The translations under genes were made by a program, and so were the position numbers. Shown here piece by piece: positions 1,959 to 24,016 of a DNA stretch of 36,864 nucleotides (position 1 is the first letter of the stretch; each line of letters starts with the position of its first letter). The DNA lies in IMG/VR virus record IMGVR_UViG_3300033146_004708, positions 1-36,864 of that record; one strand, written 5' to 3'. Source of the DNA: a virus. A model generated the notes under the pieces. That model saw only the letters and a list, made by a program, of their open reading frames with translations. It searched no databases and was not told the DNA's origin.

Positions 1959-3361
1959 TTTTCTTCATTATATGTTTGAAGTCTTGTTATAGAGTGTTCA
2001 GCAAGATATTTATAAGGATCAAGAAAATCAATTAACAGGATTGATTTTTTTGTCTCTGTTGTTCTTAATCCTCTGCCCATTGCTTGAAGTACTCTTTTTT
2101 TCTCTTTCATTCCTGCGGCATAAATTATGATTTCTAAATTTTTTATGTTTATGCCTTCCATCCAGACCTTAGATGCTATTACAATATGATTTTTATTTTT
2201 TATAATGTCATTTTTATGTCTCATTCTTTCTTCGTTATCAAGACTTCCTTGGATAAATGGAACATTTATTTTTAGTCTTTTTTTGAATATGGTTTGAAGT
2301 AATTCTCCATGTTTTATCTTTTCTATTATTATCAGAGTCGGACTTTTGTTTTTTAATGCCTTTTCTACAATTTTTTTGATTAATTCATTGCGAGTCTTGT
2401 TTTCTACAATTCCAAATTGATAAAAGTTTGAATATTTGCTTCTTGATGCTTTTGTTATCTTATTATCATATTCTACATTTATGAGTTTTATTTCTGGTTT
2501 TGCAATTGTTCCGTCTTTGATTCCTTTTTTGATTGTCAGTTTTGATATGACAGGTCCGAGTAGACCTTCATTTACAAGAAGACTTTCTTTTGATTTGAAA
2601 CTATCGGTTCCAGTAAAACCATATCTTCTTGGTGCTAAATTAAATTCTAAAAATCTTCCATATTGTGAGTTTAATTTTGTTACATGATGACATTCATCTA
2701 TAATTATGACATCAAATAAATCAATGAAATTTTTATTGTCTACTTTTGATATACTTTGGATTGTTGTTATTAATAAGCAAGGAGACTGTTTTGTCCTTAT
2801 TGATTTTAATGTATTTTCTACTTCTTTTGATCCTCTTGGATTAAAGATTACAGGAAGGCTTTCTTTAAACGATTGTGCTTCATTAGTTATTTGGCCAATC
2901 AGATCTTTTGTATGCGCAATAATAGCGCATCTCTTTGTTCTAAACATGCTTATGATTCCAAGTGCAATGATTGTTTTTCCACTTCCTGTTGGAGCAATTA
3001 TTTTTCCTCTATTTATTCGCTTTATTTTTTTTAGTGCTGATAATTGGTCTTTGCGGAAAGTTATATTTTTTAATTCTGGTTTGCTATCGGGTTTTATTCT
3101 CTCTCTTTTTTTGTCTATGACTTCAATTTTTATTTCTCTATTTTTACAATATTTCAAAACTCTTTTTATTAGACCAGTCAGAAAGGTTCCGCTTGAACCT
3201 TTTCTTCCAGTTATCAAATATTGTGTTTTGATTATTTGTTGTTTTGCAAAATATCCTTTTCTCCAATATTCTTTTTTATAGGCAAGAGCAAATTTAATGA
3301 CTTCCCTTGCTTCTGGATTTGCTCTTGCATGAATTTCATCAAGAATTACTATCTTTTTCAT
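1949..3361 (-). CDS. SF2 (DEAD/DEAH-type) helicase
   Basis: 470 residues from the ATG at 3361, chosen because AAGGAG lies at the right spacing; an in-frame upstream ATG at 3427 would lie inside a hairpin. After an N-terminal domain of about 100 residues come a Q-motif-like FRKDQ, Walker A APTGSGKT (about 123-130), motif II DECHH (about 222-226) and motif VI MGRGLR near the C-terminus. This is the superfamily 2 layout of phage UvsW/Rad25-like helicases, which remodel forks and recombination intermediates. It is followed by an overlapping primase gene, so the two form a replication pair. A 20-bp hairpin precedes it, suggesting separate control from the upstream genes. Confidence 0.9.
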   Translation of the reverse strand: MKKIVILDEIHARANPEAREVIKFALAYKKEYWRKGYFAKQQIIKTQYLITGRKGSSGTFLTGLIKRVLKYCKNREIKIEVIDKKRERIKPDSKPELKNITFRKDQLSALKKIKRINRGKIIAPTGSGKTIIALGIISMFRTKRCAIIAHTKDLIGQITNEAQSFKESLPVIFNPRGSKEVENTLKSIRTKQSPCLLITTIQSISKVDNKNFIDLFDVIIIDECHHVTKLNSQYGRFLEFNLAPRRYGFTGTDSFKSKESLLVNEGLLGPVISKLTIKKGIKDGTIAKPEIKLINVEYDNKITKASRSKYSNFYQFGIVENKTRNELIKKIVEKALKNKSPTLIIIEKIKHGELLQTIFKKRLKINVPFIQGSLDNEERMRHKNDIIKNKNHIVIASKVWMEGINIKNLEIIIYAAGMKEKKRVLQAMGRGLRTTETKKSILLIDFLDPYKYLAEHSITRLQTYNEEKWI

Positions 3362-3391
3362 TTTAATTATACTCCTTAATTTTGACCAAAA

Positions 3392-3440
3392 AAAAACTAC
3401 TATCATGACATCTAAAATATATGTCATGATAGTAGTTTTT
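3392..3440 (-). terminator. 20-bp perfect hairpin, probable intrinsic terminator
   Basis: Arms 3392-3411 and 3421-3440 are exact complements around a 9-nt loop. On the minus strand the stem ends in a run of T, so it fits a Rho-independent terminator after the gene at 3480-3782 and just before the helicase gene. The arms also end in A5/T5, making it usable in both directions. No ribozyme core is present. If it terminates, the helicase-primase part would depend on readthrough; I see no well-spaced promoter in the 30 bases after it. Confidence 0.65.
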
Positions 3441-3479
3441 CATTTTTTGTTTCCTCTTTTTAGTCTAAGTTATTTTGTG

Positions 3480-3782
3480 TTATAGAGTTTTAATCCATTC
3501 TTTGATTTCCCAAATTACTTCATTAATCAAATTTTCTCTTAACCATTTCGGAGTTGATTTCCATTTGATTGACAGAAAACTTTTTATTTTGCTTTCAGTT
3601 ATTTTTTTTGTTTTGCTTCTGCCAGAAGGTAGAATTTCAAAGATTTCATTTGGACTTTTTATGATGATCCAAATGATTTCTTTTGCCTCTCTGGATAGCT
3701 TTTCAAAATTATCTGCCTTTATGACCTTTTGGATCGGTGTCAATTCTGGAGATTCAATTTCTAATGGTTTGACTTCAAGCAT
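3480..3782 (-). CDS. Small protein resembling phage sigma/HTH-like proteins (tentative)
   Basis: 100 residues, ATG at 3782 after AAAAGGAGG. The stretch from LSREAKEIIW to the C-terminus (about 33-98) follows the pattern of small phage proteins with a sigma-70-region-4-like helix-turn-helix: LSxEAxxII, a short helix, then a KxxIKxFL recognition-like helix and a Trp-rich end. That assignment is from memory of the pattern and is weak. Its start overlaps the end of the upstream Cys-rich gene by 8 bases, and a hairpin follows it, so it closes a transcription sub-unit. Confidence 0.5.
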   Translation of the reverse strand: MLEVKPLEIESPELTPIQKVIKADNFEKLSREAKEIIWIIIKSPNEIFEILPSGRSKTKKITESKIKSFLSIKWKSTPKWLRENLINEVIWEIKEWIKTL

Positions 3783-4227
3783 TTTTCCTCCTTTTCAATA
3801 GTCTTTTAGAAGATTTTGGTTTTCTTCTTTTTAATGTCCTATTGTTGCCTTTCCTCCTTTTGATTTTTCTTTTTTCTTTGTTTTCTGGATTATTTGGCGG
3901 AGGGATGATTTTTTGCAGTTCAAGGAAATGGTCTTCGATAAGTGGTCTTATTTCTTTATCGAATTGTCTGCATTTTTTGCATGGCTTCCAATTGTCAAAA
4001 CTCTTTTTGTTTAATCTTCTGATCAAACAATATATCGGATTGAGTTTTTGTTTGAATTTCTCACACCAAAATGAAAATGTCGGATTGAAGTATTTGCATA
4101 TTTTACTGTCTTCAACGATTATTTTTTTTGCAATTTTGCATCTTCTTTTTGGCGTAGAACCTTTTGACAATGAGCTTTTAATCGGTGTTTGTCCATAGAA
4201 ATATTCGCAATATTTACATGATGACAT
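3775..4227 (-). CDS. Cys-rich, basic, probably zinc-binding protein
   Basis: 150 residues, ATG at 4227 after TAGGAGA. Cysteines come in pairs or spaced sets: CKYC near the N-terminus, further single Cys residues through the middle and CKKC near residue 87, which suggests one or two zinc sites. The last 45 residues are almost entirely Lys/Arg/Pro, as in nucleic-acid-binding tails. No family is recognised. It lies 49 bases after the DUF3150 gene with no ribozyme between them, and overlaps the next gene, so these genes stay on one message. Confidence 0.65.
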   Translation of the reverse strand: MSSCKYCEYFYGQTPIKSSLSKGSTPKRRCKIAKKIIVEDSKICKYFNPTFSFWCEKFKQKLNPIYCLIRRLNKKSFDNWKPCKKCRQFDKEIRPLIEDHFLELQKIIPPPNNPENKEKRKIKRRKGNNRTLKRRKPKSSKRLLKRRKNA

Positions 4228-4276
4228 TTTTTAAATCTCCTAATTAGAAAAGGATATAATCTTATCATATTATAGC

Positions 4277-5167
4277 TTAAATATCAATTTTGCGTTTAGT
4301 CTGTACGTTTGGAATTTTTTCTATTTTCTTCATCATTGAAGATAATTTGTTTCCAATTTCCAATCTAAACTCTTGATTGCTTTTCAACCGTTCAATTGTG
4401 ATTTTTTTCATTTCTCTTTTTAGGCGATTGATTGTTGTCTTTATTTTTTTGTCATCAACATGCGGTTTCCAGAGTTCTTCCCATTTTTTAATTAGTCTTT
4501 CAATCGAACCGATGGTTTTGCCATGAAGACCTTCTCCTGTCTCACATTGTTTTTGGAGTTTTTCAATTCTGAGAAGAATTTCATTTCCGATTAATGTTAT
4601 TGTCATTTCTTCCATTTCCTTGACCATTGCTTTTGTTCTTTCAATTTGTTTCTTATATTCTGCTGGATTGATTTCCATCATCTCTTTCCCGGGAATGCCA
4701 ATTTGAAAGAAATTCCATTGCATATAAAATCTGTCTCTTAATCTTTCTTTGCTTGGATATTTATTTGAGACAGCATTGTAATATTCTGGATATTTTTTCT
4801 GAAATTTTCTTTTCAATTTGTCATAATTGGAAATGAGAATTTCGACTCGATTGTTTATCTCATTATTGAATTCCTTCAAGTTTTCGTTTACTTCTCCAAC
4901 TTTTTCGGCTGGTATGAAATAAACAGCATCAATCGGGAATGGCAAAGAACTATTCAAGACATAATATTTCGCTTGTCTCTGTACAGTCATAATGTCTTTG
5001 ATAAGTGTTTTGTCAACAAACATATCCTGCATTGCTCGAATAATTTCCTTGGGAATATTTTTGCCGAGAAGTTTTTTATCGAGTCGTGCGGATGCTGTCC
5101 AAAATCCAGTTCTAAAATTGATAAGAACACCATTAGTCAAGTTTTCCAGTGCTTTGATTTCATTCAT
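4277..5167 (-). CDS. DUF3150 family protein
   Basis: 296 residues, ATG at 5167 after AAGGAGGATTTAAA. The N-terminal part matches what I know of DUF3150: a short opening beta segment (VLINFRTGFWTASARLDKK), a helix, then the SLPFPIDAVYFIPAEK motif and long charged helices (about 95-290). DUF3150 proteins are phage or mobile-element proteins of unknown function, often near AAA ATPase genes; an AAA ATPase gene lies 1.4 kb upstream in this operon. The mostly helical C-terminal half is predicted coiled coil. A pistol ribozyme lies between it and the upstream gene, so its message would start at the cleavage site at 5204. Confidence 0.75.
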   Translation of the reverse strand: MNEIKALENLTNGVLINFRTGFWTASARLDKKLLGKNIPKEIIRAMQDMFVDKTLIKDIMTVQRQAKYYVLNSSLPFPIDAVYFIPAEKVGEVNENLKEFNNEINNRVEILISNYDKLKRKFQKKYPEYYNAVSNKYPSKERLRDRFYMQWNFFQIGIPGKEMMEINPAEYKKQIERTKAMVKEMEEMTITLIGNEILLRIEKLQKQCETGEGLHGKTIGSIERLIKKWEELWKPHVDDKKIKTTINRLKREMKKITIERLKSNQEFRLEIGNKLSSMMKKIEKIPNVQTKRKIDI

Positions 5168-5199
5168 TTTAAATCCTCCTTTTTTAGTTTGTTTGTTTT

Positions 5200-5277
5200 A
5201 CCAACTTTGAAGGAGAGTTTAAACTCTCCTTCAAGCGCTCATAGCTTAATGGTCTATTTATAGTCGCTATGACGACT
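5200..5277 (-). ncRNA. Pistol self-cleaving ribozyme 1
   Basis: Minus strand. P1 is AGTCG (5277-5273) with CGACT (5266-5262). Its 6-nt loop TCATAG pairs as a pseudoknot with CTATGA (5244-5239). The conserved linker ATAAATAG, then P2 ACCA, TTAAG, the pseudoknot strand and GCG all follow the pistol order. P3 is a 14-bp stem (near 5235-5207). P2 closes with TGGT (5203-5200), and the predicted cut is between G5205 and U5204. Compared with the other four copies, P2 changes to ACCA/TGGU and the pseudoknot changes on both strands, which is covariation. It starts 4 bases after the stop of the 5282-6103 gene. Confidence 0.9.
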
Positions 5278-5281
5278 TTGT

Positions 5282-6103
5282 TTAATGCCTTGATCTTCTT
5301 TTGATTATTCTTTTCTTTGGTTTTTGTTTTTTCTTTTCCTCCTTTTTGATTGCTTTTCTTCTTTTAATTATTCTTGCTAATTTGACTTTGTCTTTTTTCT
5401 GTTTTGCCGTTTGAATTTTCTGGAAAATATCTTTTATTGATGACATCCATTCAATCGGCATTTTGCTTTTCCCATCCCATTTATAGGGAATTTCAAGATA
5501 TTCTTGAAGTAGTTTTTCAGCCTGTTCTAATGATAGACCGGAGCAGACAGTTAATCTTGATGGATCATGGACAATGGAATATTTTTCTGGAGTGATTTTG
5601 ACAATAAAGAATGGTGGTTTTGATGCGATTACTTCTTCAATTGTTTCGACAATAAAGTCTTTTAGTCGTTTTTCAAGTCGATTGAATTTTAATCTGATCA
5701 AATGATTTATTGTTTCCCATTCATCAGATTGTTTGATTATTTCTTGCTGTTCTTTTGGTGGAACCGTTTTGCTTTTGGTTTTTTTATTGTTTTCTTTTAC
5801 TTTTGTCAGCAATTGTTTAAATGCCAAATACTGCTGACATCGGGAGCAGTTACAATCTTTTGGAGAAAGATCATCATTAACAGCAATGTCTTTTACTCTG
5901 ATATCACATAGTGCAGAGTTTTCTTTGTTTGATATTGCATGAATGATATTGCTGTTATTTTTTTTCCCAAAACCAATAATTACTTTCGTTTTTTCGTCTT
6001 TGTTCTGCTTTGGTTTATCAACATTTGTTGATTCTCCTGTTGCAGATTTTTTTTGGTTTGTTTTTGTTGCCGCTTTTTGATTGTCTTTTTTCTGATTTGC
6101 CAT
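5282..6103 (-). CDS. Lys-rich protein of unknown function with a Cys cluster
   Basis: 273 residues, ATG at 6103 after TAGGAGGAAAAG. Not recognised. The first 40 residues and the last 45 are Lys/Gln/Arg-rich and probably disordered, so nucleic-acid binding is possible. A DCNCSRCQQY segment near residue 85 gives three closely spaced Cys. A folded-looking centre (about 120-235) contains EVIASKPPFFIVKITPEKYS. Pistol ribozymes bound it on both sides, so its message would be monocistronic after cleavage. Confidence 0.7.
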   Translation of the reverse strand: MANQKKDNQKAATKTNQKKSATGESTNVDKPKQNKDEKTKVIIGFGKKNNSNIIHAISNKENSALCDIRVKDIAVNDDLSPKDCNCSRCQQYLAFKQLLTKVKENNKKTKSKTVPPKEQQEIIKQSDEWETINHLIRLKFNRLEKRLKDFIVETIEEVIASKPPFFIVKITPEKYSIVHDPSRLTVCSGLSLEQAEKLLQEYLEIPYKWDGKSKMPIEWMSSIKDIFQKIQTAKQKKDKVKLARIIKRRKAIKKEEKKKQKPKKRIIKRRSRH

Positions 6104-6143
6104 TTTCTTTTCCTCCTATTCATTAAAGTTATTCGGCTTTATT

Positions 6144-6220
6144 GCCAACGAAAGAGTAGTAATTTTTACTACTCTCTCCGCTTTGAGCTTAAAGGCCTGT
6201 TTATAGTCGCTCAAACGACT
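6144..6220 (-). ncRNA. Pistol ribozyme 2, overlapping the 3' end of a gene
   Basis: Minus strand. P1 is AGTCG/CGACT (6220-6216, 6209-6205), with loop TTTGAG pairing to CTCAAA (6187-6182). Linker ATAAACAG is followed by P2 GCC, TTTAAG, GCG, and a 12-bp P3 with one G-U pair. The cut is predicted between G6149 and U6148, and P2 closes with GGC (6146-6144). P1 and its loop are also the last coding bases of the gene ending at 6201: the stop codon TAA sits in the conserved linker. The fourth P2 pair is U-U here. Just downstream TTGGC can also pair with GCCGA, which would compete with P2. Confidence 0.9.
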
Positions 6221-6470
6221 TTTCCATTATAGACTTTGCTCTTTTTGTGACTCTGTCTTTCAGGTATGGATTTAAGATTTTACTGACTGTTGTAAATTCT
6301 CCATCATGGATAAAAATTGTTTCCTTTGGAGCATTTAACTTATAGGCTTGAATCATGGAAGAAACAATCTGTTCTGTTTGATGTTTCATTTCAACTCCCC
6401 AACTAAAAATAAAAGGGAAATTCTCTTTTAACTGGTAAAAATTCGGTACTTCTTTGTTGTCTGTACCCAT
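6201..6470 (-). CDS. Small protein of unknown function
   Basis: 89 residues from the ATG at 6470, which follows AAGGAGGATTTGAAA; an in-frame TTG two codons earlier is inside that leader and is not the start. Not recognised. It has a Gln/Ile-rich helix (about 28-45) and a basic C-terminal helix. The final codons (KSFERL and stop) coincide with P1, the loop and the linker of pistol ribozyme 2, so its C-terminal sequence is constrained by RNA structure. A hammerhead precedes its leader. Confidence 0.65.
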   Translation of the reverse strand: MGTDNKEVPNFYQLKENFPFIFSWGVEMKHQTEQIVSSMIQAYKLNAPKETIFIHDGEFTTVSKILNPYLKDRVTKRAKSIMEKSFERL

Positions 6471-6501
6471 TTTCAAATCCTCCTTTTTATTTATTTGACT
6501 T

Positions 6502-6563
6502 GCCTCATCAGTATATAAGTAGTCAACTTATATAGACCGGAGAATTACTTCTCCGGTTTCGGC
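6502..6563 (-). ncRNA. Type II hammerhead ribozyme 1
   Basis: Minus strand, stop codon TAA directly before it. Order: GCC (stem II), GAAA core, stem III CCGGAG/CTCCGG with an 8-nt loop, GUC cleavage triplet, stem I TATATAAG/CTTATATA, core CTGATGA (6511-6505), then GGC closing stem II. Stem II is the open end, the definition of type II. All core bases are consensus. Predicted cut after C6535. Stem III and its loop are identical in the copies at 8016 and 9883, while stem I differs and stays paired. Confidence 0.93.
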
Positions 6564-7982
6564 TTAGATAATTTCAAGTTTTCTTGATTTGACTTTGTGT
6601 TTTGTTGCAGAGGTTGGAATGTCTGCTGGGATTGTGCGTCCTTTTGCCCAGACTCTTAATTCTGTTATTTCTTCTTCCATTGTTAAAGCCATAGGCAAAA
6701 TGAATTTACTGGCTTTTGTTAAAGAGACATTCCTCATATCTGCATTATGGCAAAGTGCTTCAATTTCTGCTCCTGTCCAATCTTCCATCTTGGGAATTGT
6801 CTTTGGTTTAGGCAGGGAGAATTTCTTGATATAGTAGTCAAGAATTTTTCTCTTTACTTTGTCATTTGGAAGATCAACAAAGAATGGTGCGCAATCCCAT
6901 CTACCAGCCCGAAGATATTCCGGAGGCACTCCCCGAAAACTGTTAAATGTTGCGGCAATGTAAATGCCTTTTGGTCGATCTTGCAAAAATTCAAGCCATC
7001 GGCCTGTTGCTCGTCTTGTCACTCCAGAATCAAGGTCACCAGTACTGCCAGCACCGGCAAATTGCTTTTCCATTTCATCAAACAATATAAAGCAATCTCC
7101 AAGTGCAGTAACAAGGTCAATAAACTTTTCGATATTGGCATCTGTTTCACCTTGGAATTTCGAAAAGAATTTGCCCATCCTGACCTGAATCCCAAGTTTT
7201 CCAGACTCGGCAACAATTGCTTTTGCAAGGCATGTTTTGCCGGTTCCCGGAGGGCCAATAAAACAAACTCCTTTACTTTTGGGATTGTCAATTGTTGACA
7301 TGACTTGTTCTTTTGGATTTTCAAGACCAATAATGTCATCGAAAGTAATGTCAGGCCGAAGAATTGTTGCAAACCCTGATTTTTCGATTGTTTGCGCTCG
7401 ATAGTCATTAATTACTTCAAGATCAAATCTTTTCTTCTTGACAAGTGACAGGGCATAAACGTTTTCCAGTTCTCGTAAAGTCAAACCTTTGCTTGTCTTA
7501 ACTACCTTTTCAAGATATGAACCTTGCGGAACATATTTTGAATCGGGAGCAACAGTTTTGATTTGTTCTGAAATTTCATCTTCTGTTGGCATGGGCATCT
7601 TTAAAATAGTAAAGTCTTTTTCCAATTCGATTGGAATTTTTTTTCTGTTAGAGACGATTACTATTGCTTTATTTTCTGATGCCCAGATTGGGATGGAGTC
7701 TTGTATTTTTTGGATGACTTGCGGTCTGTCAATAAACCAGTGATAGTTGAAACAGAACATGACAGTATATTCATCTGCACTGTCAATTTCTACTAATGGT
7801 TGCATGGGATTTGCGTCTTTTAAACAAGACCATTCAGAAGACTTGTAATGACTGCCGTTTTTGAGTTTAAAATCTTCCAATTTTTGATAGAAGTTTTGTT
7901 TTACTCTCGACGGTTCATCAGTTTCAAGCCAAAACAAAGTAAAACCTGCTCTTAGATAGTTAATGAGTTCCAGTTCTTTCAT
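6564..7982 (-). CDS. AAA+ ATPase, Ycf46-like
   Basis: 472 residues, ATG at 7982 after GGAGGATTTGAA. An N-terminal domain of about 200 residues opens with the LRAGFTLFWLETDEPSRV pattern seen in Ycf46-type ATPases. The AAA module follows: Walker A GPPGTGKT (243-250), Walker B FILFDEME (about 299-305), an arginine-finger region near TRRATGRW and a C-terminal lid. Ycf46-like ATPases are widespread in cyanobacteria and phages, with no settled function. Here the neighbours are DUF1257 (Ycf35-like) and DUF2997, the same association known from cyanobacterial genomes, so they may act together. Hammerheads flank it on both sides. Confidence 0.85.
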   Translation of the reverse strand: MKELELINYLRAGFTLFWLETDEPSRVKQNFYQKLEDFKLKNGSHYKSSEWSCLKDANPMQPLVEIDSADEYTVMFCFNYHWFIDRPQVIQKIQDSIPIWASENKAIVIVSNRKKIPIELEKDFTILKMPMPTEDEISEQIKTVAPDSKYVPQGSYLEKVVKTSKGLTLRELENVYALSLVKKKRFDLEVINDYRAQTIEKSGFATILRPDITFDDIIGLENPKEQVMSTIDNPKSKGVCFIGPPGTGKTCLAKAIVAESGKLGIQVRMGKFFSKFQGETDANIEKFIDLVTALGDCFILFDEMEKQFAGAGSTGDLDSGVTRRATGRWLEFLQDRPKGIYIAATFNSFRGVPPEYLRAGRWDCAPFFVDLPNDKVKRKILDYYIKKFSLPKPKTIPKMEDWTGAEIEALCHNADMRNVSLTKASKFILPMALTMEEEITELRVWAKGRTIPADIPTSATKHKVKSRKLEII

Positions 7983-13387: not shown

Positions 13388-13966
13388 ATGATAGACATGC
13401 CTAAAAAAAGAAAGAAAGAGATAGTAAAAAGGAAGGTCGGAAGAAATTGGATATCGGCTGATGGAAGACGACTCAAGAGAAGGAAGAGTGGTCTTGACCA
13501 TATTACAAGAAGAAAAAGGCAGATATTGTATGAAGCAATAAGGTTAGGTATGACAAGGTCATCTGCTTGTAACCTTGCAGGAATAACCTATAAGACCTTT
13601 AGTATTTTTTTAGACAGAGGTAAAGACAAGACATTCAGGAAGAATTATAGGTTTAGAAAGAAGATTGAAGCTCTTGAAGCTGAATCAGAGAAGGAAGCTT
13701 TGAATGTAATTAGACAGGCATCAAGAGGAGGAATAAGTATAAAGAAGATCAAAGTAAAGAGTGGACTAAAAGATTCATTCAGAGAAGTGACAACAACGGA
13801 GCTTGCTCCACAGTGGCAAGCAGCAGCATGGTTTCTTGAGAGAAAGAAGGCAAAGGATTGGGGAAGAGATAATACAGGTGAAGACATCAAATCCTCTGAA
13901 GACATTGCAAGGGAAATTGCAGAAGCGCAAAAGTATGTTGAAGAATCAATTCCGATGGAGCCTTAA
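13388..13966 (+). CDS. Terminase small subunit
   Basis: 192 residues. After a Lys/Arg-rich N-terminus, residues about 35-75 form a helix-turn-helix (ILYEAIRLGMTRSSACNLAG then TYKTFSIFLDRG), the usual DNA-recognition domain of small terminases. A helical middle and a C-terminal part with WFLERKKAKDWGRD, typical of this family (the WxLER...WG motif), follow. It binds packaging sites and recruits the large subunit encoded 2 bases downstream. The start at 13388 has AGGAG only 3 bases away; the ATG at 13397 is an alternative (spacing 12). Confidence 0.9.
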   Translation: MIDMPKKRKKEIVKRKVGRNWISADGRRLKRRKSGLDHITRRKRQILYEAIRLGMTRSSACNLAGITYKTFSIFLDRGKDKTFRKNYRFRKKIEALEAESEKEALNVIRQASRGGISIKKIKVKSGLKDSFREVTTTELAPQWQAAAWFLERKKAKDWGRDNTGEDIKSSEDIAREIAEAQKYVEESIPMEP

Positions 13967-13968
13967 TA

Positions 13969-15426
13969 ATGAGTAGAGTTTTAAGAAGAAGAAAACAATT
14001 TTATACCAGCAATGTTGAAGAGCAAGCAAGACTTAAGAGACCATATTCTGTAACTAATGCAGTAAAAGACCGATTCAAATATAGTAATTATCGCAAGAGA
14101 CTTTATAAGTTAAAGTATCATCCTGTTCAAGCTGCTTTGTGGAAGTCAACAGCAAGATTCAATATTGTTCATGCTGGCCGACGGTCAGGCAAAACTGAGA
14201 TTATAGGCAAAAGGAAGATAATAAGAAAAGTTCTAAGTCCTGTTGATCATCCAGAAGGAGGAAAGTTTTTTGTAGCTGCTCCGACAAGAGACCAAGTCAA
14301 AAGAATTTATTGGAAAGACTTGAAATTGATGATCCCCGGAAGTCTTCGCAGCAGACCACCATCCGAATCCCTCCTTATTATATATGTAAAAAACGGCAAT
14401 GAATTGCATCTACTTGGAATGGATAGACCTGAAAGAATAGAAGGAACACCTTGGGAACATGGAGTTCTTGATGAAATTGGAAACATGAAACCGAATACAT
14501 GGGGAGAGCATGTCAGACCAGCACTTGCTGATAGACTTGGAACATGTGATTTTATCGGAGTACCAGAAGGTAGAAATCACTACTTTGACTTATGTGAAGC
14601 AGCAAAGGAAGACACAACAGGCAATTGGGCAATTTGGCACTGGTTGAGTGCAGATATTCTTCCACCAAAAGAGATAGAACAGGCCAAAAGAGACCTTGAC
14701 CTTTTGACCTATCAGCAGGAATATGAAGGCTCCTTTGTGTCTTTTGTTGGCAGGGCATACTACAATTTTGACCAGACGATTCATGTCGGAAGATATGTTC
14801 AATATTATGATTCTAAGAGACCGCTTGTTTTATGCTTTGATTTTAATGTCTCTCCGGGAGTGGCGTCTATCATTCAGGAATTGCCGCGAAGAGTTTCAAA
14901 TGAAGAGAATATTCCAGTGATAGGCAAAACAACGACTGCTGTCATTGATGAAGTATACATAGAGAAAAATTCAAATACTGTTCGCATCTGCAATGAAGTG
15001 ATATCGAAATACAGAAATCACGAAGACAATGTCATTTGTTATGGTGATGCAACAGGAGGTGCAAAAGGTACTGCAAAGGTAAGGGGTTCTGACTGGGATC
15101 TGATCAAGCAAGTACTTTATCCTGTCTTTGGACATCGTCTATTTTTCAATGTGCCTAAGAGAAATCCAAGTGAAAGGTCAAGAATCAATGCTGTAAACTC
15201 AAGGTTTCTTAATTCTTATAATGAAGTACACTTTGTCATAGATGGTAACTGTAAGATGACTATCAAAGACTTTGAAGGTGTCAGATTAAAGGATGATGGC
15301 AGTGGAGCAATTGATAAGACTAAGGATGTTAAGCTATCGCATTTAAGTGATGCTATTGGATATTACATAAACAAGGAATTTCCGATTATAAAGGTTCAAT
15401 CTCTTGGAGAGAAGTATTTCAAATAA
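13969..15426 (+). CDS. terL: Terminase large subunit
   Basis: 485 residues. ATPase domain: Walker A AGRRSGKT (about 71-78), Walker B GVLDEIGN (about 165-172). Nuclease domain (RNase H fold): acidic motifs LCFDFNVSPG (about 290), VIDEVYIE (about 328), CYGDATGG (about 360) and LSDAIGYYI near the C-terminus. This is the packaging motor that translocates and cuts DNA at the portal. All key motifs are present and length is normal. It follows the small terminase immediately. Confidence 0.96.
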   Translation: MSRVLRRRKQFYTSNVEEQARLKRPYSVTNAVKDRFKYSNYRKRLYKLKYHPVQAALWKSTARFNIVHAGRRSGKTEIIGKRKIIRKVLSPVDHPEGGKFFVAAPTRDQVKRIYWKDLKLMIPGSLRSRPPSESLLIIYVKNGNELHLLGMDRPERIEGTPWEHGVLDEIGNMKPNTWGEHVRPALADRLGTCDFIGVPEGRNHYFDLCEAAKEDTTGNWAIWHWLSADILPPKEIEQAKRDLDLLTYQQEYEGSFVSFVGRAYYNFDQTIHVGRYVQYYDSKRPLVLCFDFNVSPGVASIIQELPRRVSNEENIPVIGKTTTAVIDEVYIEKNSNTVRICNEVISKYRNHEDNVICYGDATGGAKGTAKVRGSDWDLIKQVLYPVFGHRLFFNVPKRNPSERSRINAVNSRFLNSYNEVHFVIDGNCKMTIKDFEGVRLKDDGSGAIDKTKDVKLSHLSDAIGYYINKEFPIIKVQSLGEKYFK

Positions 15427-16762: not shown

Positions 16763-18307
16763 ATGATTTCATCTGGACAAACTTTGACTGTTGGCGATTT
16801 GATAGAAAAAAATGAATTGTACACTCTAAATTATGAAAACTGGCTTTTTTTGCAAGCCTGTTATGACGGAACACGAGAGCTTTTAAGGCTTGGATATCTT
16901 CCACGGCATGAAAGGGAATCAGTAGCAAATTATAGAAGAAGACTCGATATTGCATACGGCTATAATTATTCCAAGTCTATTGTTGATCTTATGAATTTTT
17001 ACTTGTTTCAGAAGCCGGTCAGAAGAGATATGGGAAGATTAAAAAATGATCCACAGTGGAAAATGTTCATGGATGATTGTGATTTATATGGAAATTCATT
17101 TGATGATTTTCTTACAGATCAAGGAAGAAATGCAGAAATAAATGGAGCTGTTGGAATTCTTGTTGACAAAACCAACACAAAATTTGAAACGCGCAAGGAA
17201 GAAATTGAAAACCGAGTGTACCCGTATGTCTCCGCTTATTGGCCTGTCAATATTTATGACTGGGAGTTTAGAAGAGATAGTCGCAACAGACCATATCTTG
17301 CTTATTTGAAATTGCTCGATGATGATGGACAATTTAGGTTATGGTGGACTGACAAGATTGAGGTATGGTCTGCTCCTGATGAGGTTGATATTGACAGCAC
17401 AAAAGAAGTAAACACGAAAGCAAAGAAAATTATTGACTCTAAAAATCCTCTGGGAAAGATACCTTTTATTTGGCTTTACAATATGCAGTCAAGAGTAAGA
17501 CCAATCGGAATCAGTGATATTCAGGAAGTCGGGAAAATTGATGTCTCCATAATGAATAATTTGAGCCAAGGTGAAGAAGTAATTGACTTTGCGGCATTTC
17601 CGATGATGCGTAAACCTATGAGAGAAGTAAAACCGATGGGGAATGCTTCTGACCAGTCACCTGATGATGTCGGTCCTTCGGCTATTCTTGAATTTGATCC
17701 AGAGGTTCCAGAAAGTAAACCTGACTGGCTTGAATCTAAGGTTAGGGAACCTCTGGAAGCAATTTTAGAATGGATTTCAAAGAAGACTGCTGAAATTTAT
17801 AGAGTAGTAAATGCTGGTGGCATTACAGCAACAGAAGTGTCTAAGGCACCAAAATCAGGAACCGCATTGACCATTGAATTTCAGATGTTAAATGCTGCTC
17901 TTGTCAGGAAAGCAATCAATCTTGAGAAGGCAGAGAAGGCAATTATCAATTTCTGGCTACAATGGCAAAAACAGCAGGACTATTATGAAACAATCGAGAT
18001 AAAGAGAGACCGCAACTATAACGTTGAAAATCTCGCTGTTGAATTGGAAAATATTTTGACTTCCATGACAATCGTCAAGAGCAGCACATTCAGAGGTCAT
18101 ATGCAGAAGATGACAGCCAGAAAAATGTTGCCGAATGCAGAAGAAAAGACTATTAATACGATTGACAAAGAGATTGACAGCGCTCCGTCTTTGACTTCTT
18201 CTGCTCCTTCCTCTCAACCGATAGTTCCCAGTAATGAAAATCAACCGACTGAAAATGCTCCTAATGGAACAACTTCTGTTATTGATATATCTGCTGCCAA
18301 GAAATAA
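16763..18307 (+). CDS. Portal protein
   Basis: 514 residues, ATG after AGAAGGAGACAAATAAA. The N-terminal part (CYDGTRELLRLGYLPRH, then YGYNYSKSIVDLMNFYLFQKP) and a central clip/stem-type region match DUF4055/SPP1-like portal proteins; the position between terminase and the MuF gene supports this. A Ser/Pro/Asn-rich C-terminal tail of about 40 residues is probably disordered. It forms the dodecameric ring through which DNA passes. Confidence 0.88.
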   Translation: MISSGQTLTVGDLIEKNELYTLNYENWLFLQACYDGTRELLRLGYLPRHERESVANYRRRLDIAYGYNYSKSIVDLMNFYLFQKPVRRDMGRLKNDPQWKMFMDDCDLYGNSFDDFLTDQGRNAEINGAVGILVDKTNTKFETRKEEIENRVYPYVSAYWPVNIYDWEFRRDSRNRPYLAYLKLLDDDGQFRLWWTDKIEVWSAPDEVDIDSTKEVNTKAKKIIDSKNPLGKIPFIWLYNMQSRVRPIGISDIQEVGKIDVSIMNNLSQGEEVIDFAAFPMMRKPMREVKPMGNASDQSPDDVGPSAILEFDPEVPESKPDWLESKVREPLEAILEWISKKTAEIYRVVNAGGITATEVSKAPKSGTALTIEFQMLNAALVRKAINLEKAEKAIINFWLQWQKQQDYYETIEIKRDRNYNVENLAVELENILTSMTIVKSSTFRGHMQKMTARKMLPNAEEKTINTIDKEIDSAPSLTSSAPSSQPIVPSNENQPTENAPNGTTSVIDISAAKK

Positions 18308-18326: not shown

Positions 18327-21182
18327 ATGCCAAAGGACAATATTTCAATTGGCCGAGTGATGACGGTCTATAATAGGTCTGATGACTTTCTTGAATCGTT
18401 GAGAAACAATCATCAACAGAGGTTGCTTTCTTCCATTACAAAATTAAGAGAAAACATTCAGGGAATGATGACTTCTCTGTCGACTACAAGTTCTGGAAGA
18501 ATAGAAGGGATGTCGATCAATCTAAAACAGGCACAGAGAATTCACAAAGACCTTGTCAATGAATTCGAAAAGACATATGGAGTTGAAGTCAATAGTCTTA
18601 TCGGTTCATTTGATGACATAACAGATGATATTATTAGCACTTACAATGATCTGAATGTTGCGACTCGATTTACTTCTACTGACAAGGACATTATCAATCA
18701 GTTGAAGAATACTGCCTACACTCAATTTGATCAGTTCGGAGAAGCAGCAAAAGAAAGAATTGCAGATGCCATGTATGGATCAATTCTTTCTGGAGACAAA
18801 TTTTCTGATCTGACAAGACAGGTCGAAGGTATTCTTGAAGGTCATCAGGATGTTCGTGGCCGGCCCATGTCTCAATATGCTTCTACATATGCATGGGATT
18901 CAATCATGAATTTCCATAATCAAGTCAATACTAAAAAAGGAGAAGATGCCGGTCTGAGTAGTTTTCTATACTTTGGAAATTTGATTTCTACTTCACGTTC
19001 TTTTTGTATCCGTAGAGCAGGAAATGTCTATACAAAGGATGAAATTCAGGCATGGAATGATGACAGTTGGCCGGGGAAGTCAGGTCCGCCTTTTATTTAC
19101 AGAGGCGGATATAACTGCCGGCATCACTGGAGACCTGTAAAGATTGAATGGGTAAAGGGAACAGAACAGGAAGAAAATATAGCAATGATGTCTGGCAGTA
19201 AAGAGGTCAAACAGATTGGTTATGACATAAGCAAGAAACAAAAGTCGCTTGAAAAAGGAGTTGTCAACGGAAAGAAAATAAAGAAGCAAATGAAAGCAGC
19301 AGAGGCAAAGGCAAAGAGTGCAAAAAGAGAAACAACGAAAACAAAGTATGCTAATGAAGCGGCTGTTCTTAAGAAAAGGTATGATAAACAGGTCATTTCC
19401 AATAGAAAGATAAAAGAAGACATTGACAGATCAAGAGCAAAGTTGAGAAATGAAGGTCGCAAAATAATGTCTTCGACGGAAGTGAAGCAAAAACAGAAAG
19501 CAGCGACTATAAAAGCAAGTAAAAAAAGAGCAAAAGAAAAGCAGACAATTTCTTTGAGAGAGAAGCAAGAAAAAAGATTGTCTGAGAATGTCAGCAAATT
19601 GAAATCGAATGGTGTTAAAGTTGTTAGCTATGGCGATGGATGGCTGGATAAAAATGGAAATTTCGATTTTGGGCATGCAAGCCAACAGGTTTCAAGTCTT
19701 AATACTGAATTGAGTAGAATAAGAAAAGATTATGTTGCAGTTGATCAATTGATGAAGAAGTTTCCAATTGAAGATTTACGTTTATCTCGGACTCAATATT
19801 TGCCATATCTTAATGGTGGAATGGCAAGAGGTTTATATTACAATGGACGAAATATGATGTCTCTTGCAACAGAATTGAAAACGTTTAAGGGAGAAATGAG
19901 GTCTTTGTCTTCTGTCGAGAGAAGTATTTTGCCGACAGAAATGGTTCCAAGAGGACGATTTACAATAACCAGTCAAACAGAATCGCCGATTACTACATTT
20001 AGACATGAGCTTGGACATCATGCTCATGAACATATTGTCATTGATGATAAAAGAAAATGGGATGCTCTTTTTTGGAAGAGAAAAGAAATATTTAAACAAG
20101 AGGTCAGTTTATATTCTGCTACGAATCCAAATGAAGCATTTGCCGAATCATTTGCTCTGTTTACGAGCAAACAATATAAATTTGGAATGTTGCCAAAAGA
20201 AATTGAAGAGTATATGGGTAAAGTATTAGGACAGGATACAATCGGAGTGTCAAAAAAGGTTGCTGCTAATCTGAATCGAGAATACAGAGAAATAAAAGTC
20301 TTTAAAGACAAGGCTGGCCCGATGCCTGCTCTTGCAAAACAAGCCGAAGAAAATTATGTTCGGATGGGAAATGAATGGTTTTATAAGGGAGAAAAAATAA
20401 TTAAACCGGAAGTGTTAGACCGGTTAAATAAAATGCGAGTGCCTCCGGCATGGGATAATGTAGTTGTGTCTGTTGATCCAGCAGCAAAGATTCAAGTCAT
20501 CGGAGTAGACAAGGTCGGAAGATGGCAATATCGTTATTCTGCCGAGCATGTAGCAGCCGCAGCAAAACGTAAATTTGACAGGATAAGGTCATTTTCAGAA
20601 GATATTAATTCTATCAGAAAAAGAATGACTATTGACATGAGAAATGAGGAAGACCTTGCATATCTTGCAAAGTTGGAAGACTTAACAGCTATTAGAGCAG
20701 GATCAAGGACAAGTCGCAAGGCAGCAAAACAGGCATATGGATTGACGACATTAAAAAATAAGCATGTTAAAATAAAAGGAGATAAGATAACCTTAGACTT
20801 TACGGCAAAAGAAGGTATTCCGGCACACTATGAAATAAGGAACAAAGAAATTGCTGACTGGTTAAAGGGAAGACTGTCAAATACAGCACCGGATGACTTT
20901 TTGTTTCCTGATATGCCAGCATCAAAGCTGAATAAGTATATAAAGAAGATTGCTAATGGAAAAAGTTATTCAGTCAAGGACTTTCGAACATTTCATGGAA
21001 CCAGAATTGCTTTTAATGAGCTTGAAAAATATTCAGGTGTTGATTTGACAATCAAACAAAGAAAGCAGATAATAAAAGAAGTAACAAAGAAAGTCAGTGA
21101 CTTCTTGCACAACACGCCGACAATGGCAAAAACTTCTTACATTGATCCTGTCGTATGGGATTTAATTGGAGGTCTACCTTGA
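18327..21182 (+). CDS. MuF head protein fused to a zincin domain and topoisomerase IB
   Basis: 951 residues in one frame. Residues about 130-275 are a MuF/SPP1 gp7-type head-morphogenesis domain (SILSGDKFSDLTRQVE; then ISTSRSFCIRRAGNVYTKDE and YRGGYNCRHHWRPV). About 285-425 is a Lys-rich coiled coil. About 430-650 holds a zinc metallopeptidase-like domain with His560-Glu-x-x-His564 and Glu607 in NPNEAFAESFALF. About 690-951 is a topoisomerase IB domain: PPAWDNVVVS and QYRYSAEHV at its start, then the catalytic set Arg790 (LTAIRAG), Lys828 (FTAKEG), Arg887 (KDFRTFHGT), Asn929 and Tyr938 (KTSYIDP). It would be carried in the head at the portal vertex and could be ejected with the DNA to relax it in the new host; the protease part may mature it. 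That role is inferred. Confidence 0.9.
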   Translation: MPKDNISIGRVMTVYNRSDDFLESLRNNHQQRLLSSITKLRENIQGMMTSLSTTSSGRIEGMSINLKQAQRIHKDLVNEFEKTYGVEVNSLIGSFDDITDDIISTYNDLNVATRFTSTDKDIINQLKNTAYTQFDQFGEAAKERIADAMYGSILSGDKFSDLTRQVEGILEGHQDVRGRPMSQYASTYAWDSIMNFHNQVNTKKGEDAGLSSFLYFGNLISTSRSFCIRRAGNVYTKDEIQAWNDDSWPGKSGPPFIYRGGYNCRHHWRPVKIEWVKGTEQEENIAMMSGSKEVKQIGYDISKKQKSLEKGVVNGKKIKKQMKAAEAKAKSAKRETTKTKYANEAAVLKKRYDKQVISNRKIKEDIDRSRAKLRNEGRKIMSSTEVKQKQKAATIKASKKRAKEKQTISLREKQEKRLSENVSKLKSNGVKVVSYGDGWLDKNGNFDFGHASQQVSSLNTELSRIRKDYVAVDQLMKKFPIEDLRLSRTQYLPYLNGGMARGLYYNGRNMMSLATELKTFKGEMRSLSSVERSILPTEMVPRGRFTITSQTESPITTFRHELGHHAHEHIVIDDKRKWDALFWKRKEIFKQEVSLYSATNPNEAFAESFALFTSKQYKFGMLPKEIEEYMGKVLGQDTIGVSKKVAANLNREYREIKVFKDKAGPMPALAKQAEENYVRMGNEWFYKGEKIIKPEVLDRLNKMRVPPAWDNVVVSVDPAAKIQVIGVDKVGRWQYRYSAEHVAAAAKRKFDRIRSFSEDINSIRKRMTIDMRNEEDLAYLAKLEDLTAIRAGSRTSRKAAKQAYGLTTLKNKHVKIKGDKITLDFTAKEGIPAHYEIRNKEIADWLKGRLSNTAPDDFLFPDMPASKLNKYIKKIANGKSYSVKDFRTFHGTRIAFNELEKYSGVDLTIKQRKQIIKEVTKKVSDFLHNTPTMAKTSYIDPVVWDLIGGLP

Positions 21183-21587: not shown

Positions 21588-21643
21588 TTCCTAAAAATTG
21601 TTATTATATCTATACTTTAAATGATTGGCTTTGAGTGGTCAAA

Positions 21644-22093
21644 ATGTATATTCCAAAGTACTTTAAAATCTATGAGCTAATGCCAAAGCATTTTTACTCT
21701 GAAAATAAGCACAGGGGAAATTTGCTTTGGTTATTTTTCGACGAAAGAATTTTATGGACTATTGACAAGTTGAGGTCTATATATGGTCCGCTTGTCGCAA
21801 ATGACTACATATGGGGAGGTGATAAACAATATAGAGGATGGAGACCTTTTGAGTGTTTGATTGGTAAAAAATTTTCACAGCATAAATTTGGGAGGGCTGT
21901 TGATTTTGAACCAGTTCGTTTTGACCTTGGAGAAATGAGAAAACAAATCATAGCAGGAAAAAGAAAAGGCAAGAAAGAGTTCAGATTCATAAAGGCAATT
22001 GAAGCTGATGTTCCTTGGATTCATATTGATTGCAGAAATTCATTCATGGATGACAGCTTCGTTGTGTTCAGAAGTAATTATGGTTCTGGATAG
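21644..22093 (+). CDS. M15-type D-Ala-D-Ala peptidase / endolysin-like
   Basis: 149 residues from the ATG at 21644 (MYIPKYFKIYELMP, typical of this family; a GTG at 21635 is the alternative). Zinc ligands of peptidase M15 are visible: SQHKFGRAVDF with His80 and Asp87, and WIHIDCR with His127; a Glu precedes that motif. Such enzymes cut peptidoglycan cross-links. It sits among head genes, not next to a holin, so it may be a virion-associated or scaffold-region enzyme rather than the main lysin. Confidence 0.8.
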   Translation: MYIPKYFKIYELMPKHFYSENKHRGNLLWLFFDERILWTIDKLRSIYGPLVANDYIWGGDKQYRGWRPFECLIGKKFSQHKFGRAVDFEPVRFDLGEMRKQIIAGKRKGKKEFRFIKAIEADVPWIHIDCRNSFMDDSFVVFRSNYGSG

Positions 22094-22149
22094 AACAAAA
22101 ACTAAAACTTATTGTTTCCCGGATGGGTGGGAAAAGGAAGGTGGATACC

Positions 22150-23028
22150 ATGCCTTGGAAATTGAAAATTGACGAAGAAACAAAACAGCCAGTATTCGAA
22201 GACGAAAAACCCATTTACATTAATGACGAAGGCAAAGAGCTTGCTCTTGATCCGCCCGGAATGTATCAGAAAATTATTGATCTGGGCAAAGAAGCAAAAA
22301 ATCACAGAGAAAAAGCAAAAGCCTTTCAGTCGCAGTTGGCAGTATTTGAGGGCATAGATGACTTGGAGACATGGAAAGATGAAGCAATTAAAGCTCTTGA
22401 AACCGTCAAAAACTTTAATGACAAGGATTGGATGAAGGCAGAAAAGGTCGAAAGACTAAAAGCCGACATGAAGGAAGCACACGAAAAGCAGGTTCAACAG
22501 TTGAATGAACAATTTGGAATGAAAGAAAAAGACTATCAACAAACATTATCCAAAAAGGATGATCAAATTCGTCGGTTGATGGTCTCTGCTAAGTTTGCTT
22601 CCCATCCTCTCTTTAGTGGGAAAGATCCAAAGACTACTCTGCCCCCTGAAATTGCTGAGACCTATTTTGGAAAGCATTTCAAGGTAGAAGAAACCGATGA
22701 TGGTAGTCTGCGATTGAATGCCTATTATTCAAATGGTGATCCTGTTTACTCACAAATCAATCCCGGAGACCTTGCAGAATTTGAAGAAGCAATGAATATC
22801 ATTTTTGAAAAGTATCCGGCAAAGGATAGTCTTATGAGAGCAGGAGATCCCGGTTCTGGTAGTCAAGGAGGTTCGGGTGCTGGTGGCGATGATGGCGATG
22901 AATTGGCAAAACTCGAAAAAGCCTATGCTGCCGCGATTGAGAATAAGCAAAGTCAAAAAGCAATTATGCTTAAGAATCAAATTTTCAAATTGAAGCAAGA
23001 AAAAATGAGAGGCAGCAGGGCAGCATAA
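22150..23028 (+). CDS. Capsid scaffold protein
   Basis: 292 residues from the ATG at 22150 (MPWKLKIDEETKQPVFEDEK). The layout is typical of scaffold proteins upstream of a major capsid gene: a short folded N-terminus with a KPIYINDEGKELALD motif, a long charged coiled coil (about 50-160), a linker (ASHPLFSGKDPKTTLPPEIA) and a Gly-rich hinge before a basic C-terminal helix that would contact the capsid. It assists procapsid assembly and is then lost. Confidence 0.82.
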   Translation: MPWKLKIDEETKQPVFEDEKPIYINDEGKELALDPPGMYQKIIDLGKEAKNHREKAKAFQSQLAVFEGIDDLETWKDEAIKALETVKNFNDKDWMKAEKVERLKADMKEAHEKQVQQLNEQFGMKEKDYQQTLSKKDDQIRRLMVSAKFASHPLFSGKDPKTTLPPEIAETYFGKHFKVEETDDGSLRLNAYYSNGDPVYSQINPGDLAEFEEAMNIIFEKYPAKDSLMRAGDPGSGSQGGSGAGGDDGDELAKLEKAYAAAIENKQSQKAIMLKNQIFKLKQEKMRGSRAA

Positions 23029-23050: not shown

Positions 23051-24016
23051 ATGCCTGCGAACATTAATGCCCCTGCAACAACTTGGAGCTGCCCGAATTA
23101 TACGGGTGAATTGTATCTCATTGGAGCAAATCAGACTCCCTTTCTGAATATGATCGGTGGTCTACAAGGAGGAGCAATTCGTACGGTTGCGGATTTTCAG
23201 TTTCCGCTTGCACAGCCTTGGTCTTTGGAACCTGCAAGTCAGCCGGATATCTCTGAAACCGCAAGCATGACTGCTCCTGATCCTTGGACATATGTCCGTG
23301 ATCAGGATGTCAACACGGTTCAGATTTTTCAAGCGGCTGTCACAATCTCTTATGCGAAGCAATCTGTCGTCGGTCAGGTTGTCGCAGATGTGACCACAAA
23401 TCTTGTTGACGTCACTGGAATGCAGCCGGTCCAGAATGAGAAAGACTTTCAGATTTCTGCAAATCTTAGACAGATTGCAGTAAATGCTGATTATACTTTT
23501 CTCAATGGTGTTTATCAGCAAGCGACAAATGCTGGTATTGCGGCGAAGACAAGAGGAATCATTCCTGCTTGTGTTACAAATACGGTTGCTGCTGGTGGCG
23601 CTGCTCTGGACAAAGCTCTGTTCGATCAGTTGCTTAGAGAGATGGCAGTAAATGGGGCCGAGTTCACAAATCCGGTCATTTTTGTGAATGCTTTCCAGAA
23701 GCAAAAACTTTCTGATATCTATGGTTATGCTCCGCAAGATAGGAATGTTGGTGGATATAACATTAATCAGATTGAGACTGATTTTGCAATTCTTGGCGTC
23801 GTTTGGGCTCCGAATGTTCCAACAGATACTCTTCTGATTGCTGACTTGTCTGTTTGCTCTCCTGTTTTTCTCCCGGTTCCTGACAAGGGTGTTCTTTTCT
23901 ACGAAGAATTGTCCAAGACTGGAGCCGCAGAAAAAGGACAGATTTATGGTCAGATTGGTATTGACTATGGTCCGGAAGAATATCACGGAACCATCACTGG
24001 TCTTGCTGTTAGTTAA
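23051..24016 (+). CDS. Major capsid protein (HK97 fold, DUF5309/SU10-like)
   Basis: 321 residues. The N-terminus LYLIGANQTPFLNMIGGLQG, central VTISYAKQSVVGQV, the repeated NxxFLNG segment and C-terminal IYGQIGIDYGPEEYHG agree with DUF5309/SU10-type capsid proteins. GC content and codon choice are higher than in neighbours, as expected for a highly expressed gene. It follows the scaffold gene with a good AAAAAGGAGAAA site. Confidence 0.88.
   Translation: MPANINAPATTWSCPNYTGELYLIGANQTPFLNMIGGLQGGAIRTVADFQFPLAQPWSLEPASQPDISETASMTAPDPWTYVRDQDVNTVQIFQAAVTISYAKQSVVGQVVADVTTNLVDVTGMQPVQNEKDFQISANLRQIAVNADYTFLNGVYQQATNAGIAAKTRGIIPACVTNTVAAGGAALDKALFDQLLREMAVNGAEFTNPVIFVNAFQKQKLSDIYGYAPQDRNVGGYNINQIETDFAILGVVWAPNVPTDTLLIADLSVCSPVFLPVPDKGVLFYEELSKTGAAEKGQIYGQIGIDYGPEEYHGTITGLAVS

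What the first reader, a model, noticed from the sequence alone, without database searches (positions are those of the whole stretch)
18327..21182. Head protein fused to a complete topoisomerase IB
A MuF domain, coiled coil, HExxH zincin with a distant Glu, and a TopIB domain with Arg790, Lys828, Arg887, Asn929 and Tyr938 occur in one 951-residue protein. MuF proteins fused to enzymes and zincins belong to the known 'polyvalent protein' theme, but I know of no described MuF-TopIB. A virion-borne topoisomerase could relax DNA during packaging or entry. The zincin may release it from the head.
Basis: partly seen in the sequence, partly recalled or inferred. Interest (0 to 1): 0.88.

Follow-up and report, generated by a model that had tools for sequence, protein, structure and literature searches.

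The report
Topoisomerase built into phage portal proteins
A phage head protein carries a complete type IB DNA topoisomerase, and the same enzyme is fused to or encoded beside the DNA-gate (portal) proteins of about a hundred uncultured viruses, so many phages probably carry a DNA-untwisting enzyme inside the particle at the place where the genome enters and leaves.

Summary
Confirmed. Window 18327-21182 encodes one 951-aa protein: a divergent MuF-like portal-binding domain, long helices, a zincin (HExxH...ExxAE) and a complete type IB topoisomerase (TopIB: N-terminal domain, catalytic core, and catalytic residues R790, K828, R887, N929, Y938). The gene lies directly after the portal gene in a head module.

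It is not a curiosity of one contig. MuF-TopIB fusions occur in about a dozen further viral contigs, nine above Pfam's Phage_Mu_F cut-off. TopIB is also fused to the C-terminus of portal proteins of four Pfam portal families: seven contigs checked in Pfam, about 25 by my own profiles. In about 50 other contigs it lies within 1.5 kb of a MuF or portal gene. All 113 viral TopIBs examined keep the catalytic residues, apart from contig-truncated ends. About 110 TopIBs in 785 bacterial genomes are not fused to MuF, and tblastn of 50,697 phage records found no such protein. I found no description of it in the papers searched.

Best reading: a portal-tethered, virion-borne TopIB acting in cis on phage DNA during packaging, ejection or just after entry. 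Activity, presence in virions and release by the zincin are inferred, not shown.

The parts
18327..21182 (+). MuF-like / zincin / topoisomerase IB gene, 951 aa
   Evidence: second contig with the same order in one frame, L008
18327..19181 (+). Divergent MuF-like domain, residues 1-285; CxxR...GGYNCRHxxxPV motif
   Evidence: Homologous to the protein between portal and scaffold in pelagiphages HTVC112P, HTVC111P, HTVC202P and HTVC026P; HMM-HMM match to Pfam-confirmed MuF domains; fold match to minor capsid / head morphogenesis proteins in BFVD
19161..19607 (+). Long helical (coiled-coil-like) linker, residues 279-427
   Evidence: AlphaFold helices at 279-427, block-mean pLDDT about 55-94
20004..20018 (+). 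Zincin HExxH motif (HELGH, residues 560-564)
   Evidence: Shared with seven other MuF-family proteins; weak ATLF match, below cut-off
20133..20147 (+). Zincin downstream Glu motif ExxAE (residues 603-607)
20385..20510 (+). TopIB N-terminal (cap) domain, residues 687-728
   Evidence: Pfam Top1B_N_bact 1.4e-10; structure match to the vaccinia N-terminal 9-kDa domain 1vcc, Z 6.8
20565..21161 (+). TopIB catalytic core, residues 747-945, with R790, K828, R887, N929 and nucleophile Y938
   Evidence: Pfam Topoisom_I 1.8e-26; catalytic residues conserved in all viral TopIBs examined, save contig-truncated ends; Z up to 22.6 to TopIB structures
16763..18307 (+). Portal protein, gene immediately upstream
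   Evidence: phrog_145, 3.3e-57
13388..13966 (+). Terminase small subunit
   Evidence: phrog_4102, 1.2e-15
13969..15426 (+). Terminase large subunit
   Evidence: phrog_2, 1.9e-31
21635..22093 (+). Endolysin-like gene between the MuF-TopIB and scaffold genes
   Evidence: phrog_894, 1.8e-14
22123..23028 (+). Scaffolding protein
   Evidence: phrog_206, 5.3e-17; DUF6651
23051..24016 (+). Major capsid protein
   Evidence: SU10_MCP 2.1e-59

Best explanation
The protein is a minor head protein that its MuF-like domain brings to the inner face of the portal during procapsid assembly, so that each virion carries a few copies of an active type IB topoisomerase at the channel through which the genome enters and leaves. 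There it acts in cis on phage DNA. It nicks one strand through Tyr938, lets the duplex swivel and reseals it without ATP or metal, relieving torsional stress as DNA is pumped in or ejected, or on the freshly delivered genome when transcription and replication begin. The zincin, present only in some members, may cut the protein so that the C-terminal part can travel with the DNA. Shown here: sequence, domains, intact catalytic residues, gene context and recurrence. Inferred: location in the virion, catalysis, action in cis, timing, and release by the zincin. I rate about 0.4 for action just after delivery, about 0.35 for action inside the virion or during translocation, and the remainder for other roles.
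For: The TopIB is complete, with all five catalytic residues. The gene sits directly after the portal and before scaffold and capsid genes. TopIB is fused to MuF in nine contigs above Pfam cut-off (L088, L089, L101, L103, L104, L105, L106, L113, L264) and, with divergent or sub-cutoff MuF, in the window, L008, L091 and L243. It is fused to the C-terminus of portals of four Pfam families: Phage_portal_3 in L111, L207, L218 and L245; Phage_portal in L253; Phage_portal_2 in L268; Portal_Mu in L118; about 25 portal fusions by my own profiles. In about 50 more contigs it lies within 1.5 kb of MuF or portal genes, for example L102, where a window-type MuF and TopIB are separate neighbours. Upstream portals of the MuF-TopIB clade belong to PHROG families 145, 146, 12 and 21 while their TopIBs form one clade, 99/99, so the enzyme has been joined to different head modules. 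Catalytic residues are invariant in 113 viral TopIBs, apart from truncated contigs. [quoted passage not shown] The low copy number favours action on the phage's own DNA rather than the whole host chromosome.
Against: There is no virion proteomics, no activity assay and no cultured member. MuF and portal fusions to other enzymes are read in the literature as effectors aimed at the host, and TopIB shares proteins with InPase (L111) and possible ART domains (L008, L277), which suggests a cytoplasmic role. Portal-fused copies could reach the cell only if cut off. Linear DNA in a capsid may not build up torsion that needs a topoisomerase.
Confidence: 0.72

Rival explanations
1. Injected effector acting on the host: the C-terminal part is delivered and relaxes or nicks host DNA, disturbing supercoiling-dependent host transcription or a defence, like other enzymes carried by polyvalent or MuF-toxin proteins.
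For: MuF and portal fusions to RNases, ART and RelA/SpoT domains are read as injected effectors. TopIB shares proteins with InPase in L111, DUF3626 in L264, a sub-cutoff PARP match in L277, and an ART-like YRG motif in L008.
Against: MuF is present in only one to two copies per SPP1 capsid (PMC5576092), few for a whole-chromosome effect. TopIB is a housekeeping-type enzyme in bacteria, not an obvious toxin. Immunity genes were not searched for, and the minimal MuF-TopIB proteins carry no other recognised effector domain.
Confidence: 0.15
2. DNA anchor: the TopIB fold mainly clamps, or is covalently linked to, the genome end at the portal, acting as a pilot or tether with catalysis used only to attach and release.
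For: TopIB forms a C-clamp on DNA and a 3'-phosphotyrosine link (known for the family; variola complex 2h7f matches the model). Portal fusion places it by the channel.
Against: Full conservation of the catalytic residues fits turnover at least as well. No test of end specificity was possible.
Confidence: 0.07
3. Incidental fusion: an ordinary replication topoisomerase that happens to be joined to a late gene, with no virion role.
For: Stand-alone TopIBs exist in phages such as BS162P1 and jumbo phages (PMC7824862).
Against: Fusions to two kinds of portal-vertex protein, across several portal families, plus about 50 neighbouring genes, are too many for accident. No MuF fusion was seen among about 110 TopIBs of 785 bacterial genomes.
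Confidence: 0.05
4. The C-terminal part is a tyrosine recombinase rather than a topoisomerase.
For: The two enzyme classes share the catalytic fold; XerH matches the model at Z 14.2.
Against: TopIB structures match at Z up to 22.6, the TopIB-specific N-terminal domain is present, and sequence searches return TopIBs only.
Confidence: 0.01

Closest known systems
Polyvalent proteins of phages: MuF or portal fused to enzymes (PMC5512222)
   Same: Head-module gene; MuF or portal joined to enzymes and zincins in one polypeptide
   Different: TopIB is not among the domains named in that paper's main text
MuF polymorphic toxins (PMC5576092)
   Same: MuF N-terminus directly after the portal with an enzymatic C-terminus
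   Different: No recognised toxin domain in the window protein; TopIB does not appear in that paper's main text
Bacteriophage SPP1 gp7 (MuF)
   Same: Portal-associated minor head protein (PMC6316719)
   Different: gp7 is a short MuF without enzyme domains
Pelagiphage HTVC026P gp30
   Same: MuF-like domain plus zincin, between portal and scaffold genes
   Different: No TopIB
Bacterial TopIB, Deinococcus radiodurans (2f4q, 3m4a)
   Same: N-terminal and catalytic domains; catalytic Asn where poxvirus enzymes have His (general knowledge for the named enzymes; Asn seen in all TopIBs aligned)
   Different: Stand-alone cellular enzyme, about 350 aa
Poxvirus TopIB (vaccinia/variola)
   Same: A TopIB packaged in a virion (PMC6336343); same fold
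   Different: Stand-alone enzyme of a virus of eukaryotes, not tied to a portal
Jumbo-phage topoisomerase I with tyrosine-recombinase fold (PMC7824862)
   Same: A phage-encoded TopIB-like enzyme
   Different: Listed there with DNA recombination and topology functions, not as a head-protein fusion

Membership tests
Type IB topoisomerase | Catalytic core profile PF01028 above cut-off | tested here: met
   93.4 bits against 23.7
Type IB topoisomerase | N-terminal cap domain | tested here: met
   PF21338 41.2 bits against 27; 1vcc Z 6.8
Type IB topoisomerase | Catalytic Arg, Lys, Arg, His/Asn and Tyr | tested here: met
   R790, K828, R887, N929, Y938
Type IB topoisomerase | Fold closer to TopIB than to tyrosine recombinases | tested here: met
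   Z up to 22.6 against 14.2
Type IB topoisomerase | ATP-independent DNA relaxation | not testable with these tools
   Needs an assay
MuF superfamily | Pfam PF04233 / TIGR01641 above cut-off in the window protein | tested here: not met
   No PF04233 hit; TIGR01641 12.3 bits against 39.65; so it is called MuF-like, not a PF04233 member. Nine relatives with the same TopIB do pass PF04233
MuF superfamily | HMM-HMM homology to MuF domains (used to define MuF3/MuF4 in PMC5576092) | tested here: met
   93% probability global, 79% local; fold matches to minor capsid proteins
MuF superfamily | Gene directly downstream of the portal gene | tested here: met
   Portal ends at 18307, this gene starts at 18327
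Zincin-like metallopeptidase | HExxH plus downstream Glu | tested here: met
Zincin-like metallopeptidase | Profile or fold match | tested here: inconclusive
   ATLF 17.4 bits against 27.4; that region is modelled with low to middling confidence
Phage polyvalent protein | Several unrelated domains in one protein, encoded among virion genes | tested here: met
Phage polyvalent protein | Delivered into the host with the DNA | not testable with these tools
   Needs virion and infection experiments
MuF polymorphic toxin | Toxic C-terminal domain with an immunity gene | not tested
   No toxin domain recognised in the window protein; immunity genes were not searched for

The most novel reading that the evidence does not exclude
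Many tailed viruses have a torsion-relieving swivel built into the portal vertex: TopIB, fused to the portal or to MuF, works inside the capsid on DNA being packaged or ejected, so DNA twist is a real problem of genome translocation that these phages solve enzymatically.
Probability: 0.32. Interest if true: 0.92.

Novelty: new variant of a known kind. Interest (0 to 1): 0.8.

Why it matters
Whether twist matters when phage DNA is forced into or out of a capsid is hard to test. A topoisomerase tied to the portal gives a direct genetic handle: one active-site change in one protein. It also adds a DNA-topology enzyme to the known cargo of phage heads, parallels the virion topoisomerase of poxviruses, and gives a function to a group of large unannotated head proteins in environmental viruses.

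Tried and rejected
Tyrosine recombinase: rejected by profile and fold. Assembly or frame artefact: rejected, because L008 and about a dozen more contigs carry the fusion in one frame. Single-protein search with the whole protein found nothing in two collections; alignment queries were needed. I suspected the window and L008 had swapped TopIBs between similar MuF proteins because the tree separates them, but the AU test does not reject one clade (p=0.137), so I do not claim it. Long TopIB frames in bacterial genomes looked like fusions but showed no MuF by profile; those printed look like stop-to-stop overruns. L093's long N-terminus is probably also an overrun: its MuF lies in an overlapping frame. 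A generic bacterial TopIB alignment had no stretch conserved enough to search with. Foldseek of the MuF-zincin half against PDB gave nothing below E 0.001, mostly long-helix proteins. Weak 'muf' hits in L115 and L117 were discounted. No cultured phage with the fusion was found.

Full report
Observation. The gene at 18327-21182 encodes 951 residues in one frame with a ribosome-binding-like AGAGG just upstream. Pfam finds a complete type IB topoisomerase: the N-terminal domain at 687-728 and the catalytic core at 747-936, both far above cut-off. The closest solved structures are Deinococcus TopIB (E 3.9e-30) and variola topoisomerase. An AlphaFold model of residues 471-951 is confident over most of the TopIB part (block-mean pLDDT mostly 88-98, with a few weaker blocks) and matches TopIB structures at Z up to 22.6; the best tyrosine recombinase reaches 14.2.

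The N-terminal part is a divergent MuF. It misses Pfam's PF04233 and reaches only 12.3 bits to TIGR01641. It is homologous to the protein encoded between portal and scaffold in pelagiphages HTVC112P, HTVC111P, HTVC202P and HTVC026P. A profile of its relatives aligns with Pfam-confirmed MuF domains (93% probability in global, 79% in local mode), and its predicted fold matches 'minor capsid' and 'head morphogenesis' proteins. I therefore call it MuF-like. The zincin carries HELGH at 560 and ExxAE from 603, a pattern shared by seven other MuF-family proteins including HTVC026P gp30, though no zincin profile passes its cut-off.

Surroundings. The window is a whole IMG/VR record of 36,864 bases with no exact direct or inverted terminal repeat of 10-200 bases. 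The gene follows terminase and portal genes and precedes endolysin-like, scaffold and capsid genes: a head module. Its large terminase is closest to uncultured Caudoviricetes from Manatee Spring (51%); host unknown.

Recurrence. An alignment of window-type MuF regions found L008, a second contig with MuF-zincin-TopIB in one 1195-aa frame. TopIB alignments then found many more. Pfam confirms Phage_Mu_F and TopIB in one protein above cut-off in L088, L089, L101, L103, L104, L105, L106, L113 and L264, and below the MuF cut-off in L091 and L243. Pfam also confirms TopIB at the C-terminus of portal proteins: Phage_portal_3 (L111, L207, L218, L245), Phage_portal (L253), Phage_portal_2 (L268) and Portal_Mu (L118). 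A survey of 112 viral loci with my own profiles gave about 25 portal fusions, about 14 MuF fusions (with some duplicate contigs and a few weak hits that I discount), about 50 TopIB genes within 1.5 kb of a MuF or portal gene, and 15 with no such gene in the DNA held. In L102 a window-type MuF and the TopIB are separate neighbouring genes. These queries were partly built from fused proteins, so the proportions are not unbiased.

Evolution. The TopIBs of the MuF-TopIB proteins related to the window form one clade (99/99), apart from bacterial enzymes, yet the portal genes before them belong to PHROG families 145, 146, 12 and 21. The enzyme has thus been combined with different head modules. The tree does not settle whether the window and L008 acquired it separately. 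All 113 viral TopIBs keep Arg, Lys, Arg, Asn and Tyr, except two contigs that end early. In 785 bacterial genomes about 110 TopIBs were found; none aligned to the MuF part of the query together with TopIB, and the long frames checked showed no MuF by profile. A further 289-genome draw from one class with a portal-TopIB query found only TopIB matches. Among 50,697 phage records tblastn found only stand-alone or unannotated distant TopIBs and no MuF- or portal-fused one.

Mechanism. [quoted passage not shown] without gp7 particles assemble but only about 25% are infectious (PMC6316719). Fusion of TopIB to MuF or to the portal C-terminus, which in known portals faces the capsid interior (general knowledge), puts the same enzyme at the same spot by two routes. 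TopIB needs neither ATP nor metal (general knowledge), so it could work in a capsid. The simplest common function is action on the phage's own DNA at or after the portal: relieving twist during packaging or ejection, or on the incoming genome at first transcription. Vaccinia packages its TopIB in the virion (PMC6336343), a precedent in a virus of eukaryotes. Against a purely in-capsid role, TopIB shares proteins with domains that suggest host effectors, such as InPase in L111, so delivery into the cell remains about as likely. The zincin is optional: L088, L101, L104 and L113 lack HExxH.

Known or new. MuF and portal fusions to enzymes are a described theme (PMC5512222, PMC5576092, PMC3482391), but none of these names a topoisomerase among the fused domains in the text I could search, and other searches found no description. 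Only open-access papers are held and supplements could not be read, so this is absence from what was searched. I rate it a new variant of a known kind whose breadth, across four Pfam portal families plus MuF, is the surprising part.

Noticed in passing
L111:2880-6101 (+): One 1074-aa protein with Phage_portal_3, inorganic pyrophosphatase (PF18823) and TopIB; a MuF gene lies just upstream.
   Followed up: partly
L091:1750-6744 (+): 1665-aa frame with an intein-splicing match after the MuF region and TopIB at the C-terminus.
   Followed up: no
L008:4022-7606 (+), about residues 795-905; L014:980-3862 (+): ART-like YRGTGG / FRGTDG regions in MuF proteins, in L008 between zincin and TopIB; no Pfam match.
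   Followed up: no
L088:3539-6807 (+): Portal and MuF closest to Halorubrum phage Hardycor1 (37% and 41%), so MuF-TopIB may also occur in viruses of archaea.
   Followed up: partly
L264:2223-6092 (+): MuF, DUF3626 and TopIB in one 1290-aa protein; DUF3626 may be another head-borne enzyme.
   Followed up: no
L243:4589-7771 (+): Class-I glutamine amidotransferase domain in the same frame as a weak MuF match and TopIB.
   Followed up: no
window 21635-22093 (+): Endolysin-like gene placed inside the head module between the MuF-TopIB and scaffold genes.
   Followed up: no
window 1050-7982 (-): Left arm encodes primase-like, ResIII helicase, DUF3150 and AAA ATPase proteins; the DUF3150 and AAA genes lie about 1.4 kb apart.
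   Followed up: no
L010:5995-9120 (+): Window-type MuF fused to a GNAT acetyltransferase, 1042 aa.
   Followed up: no
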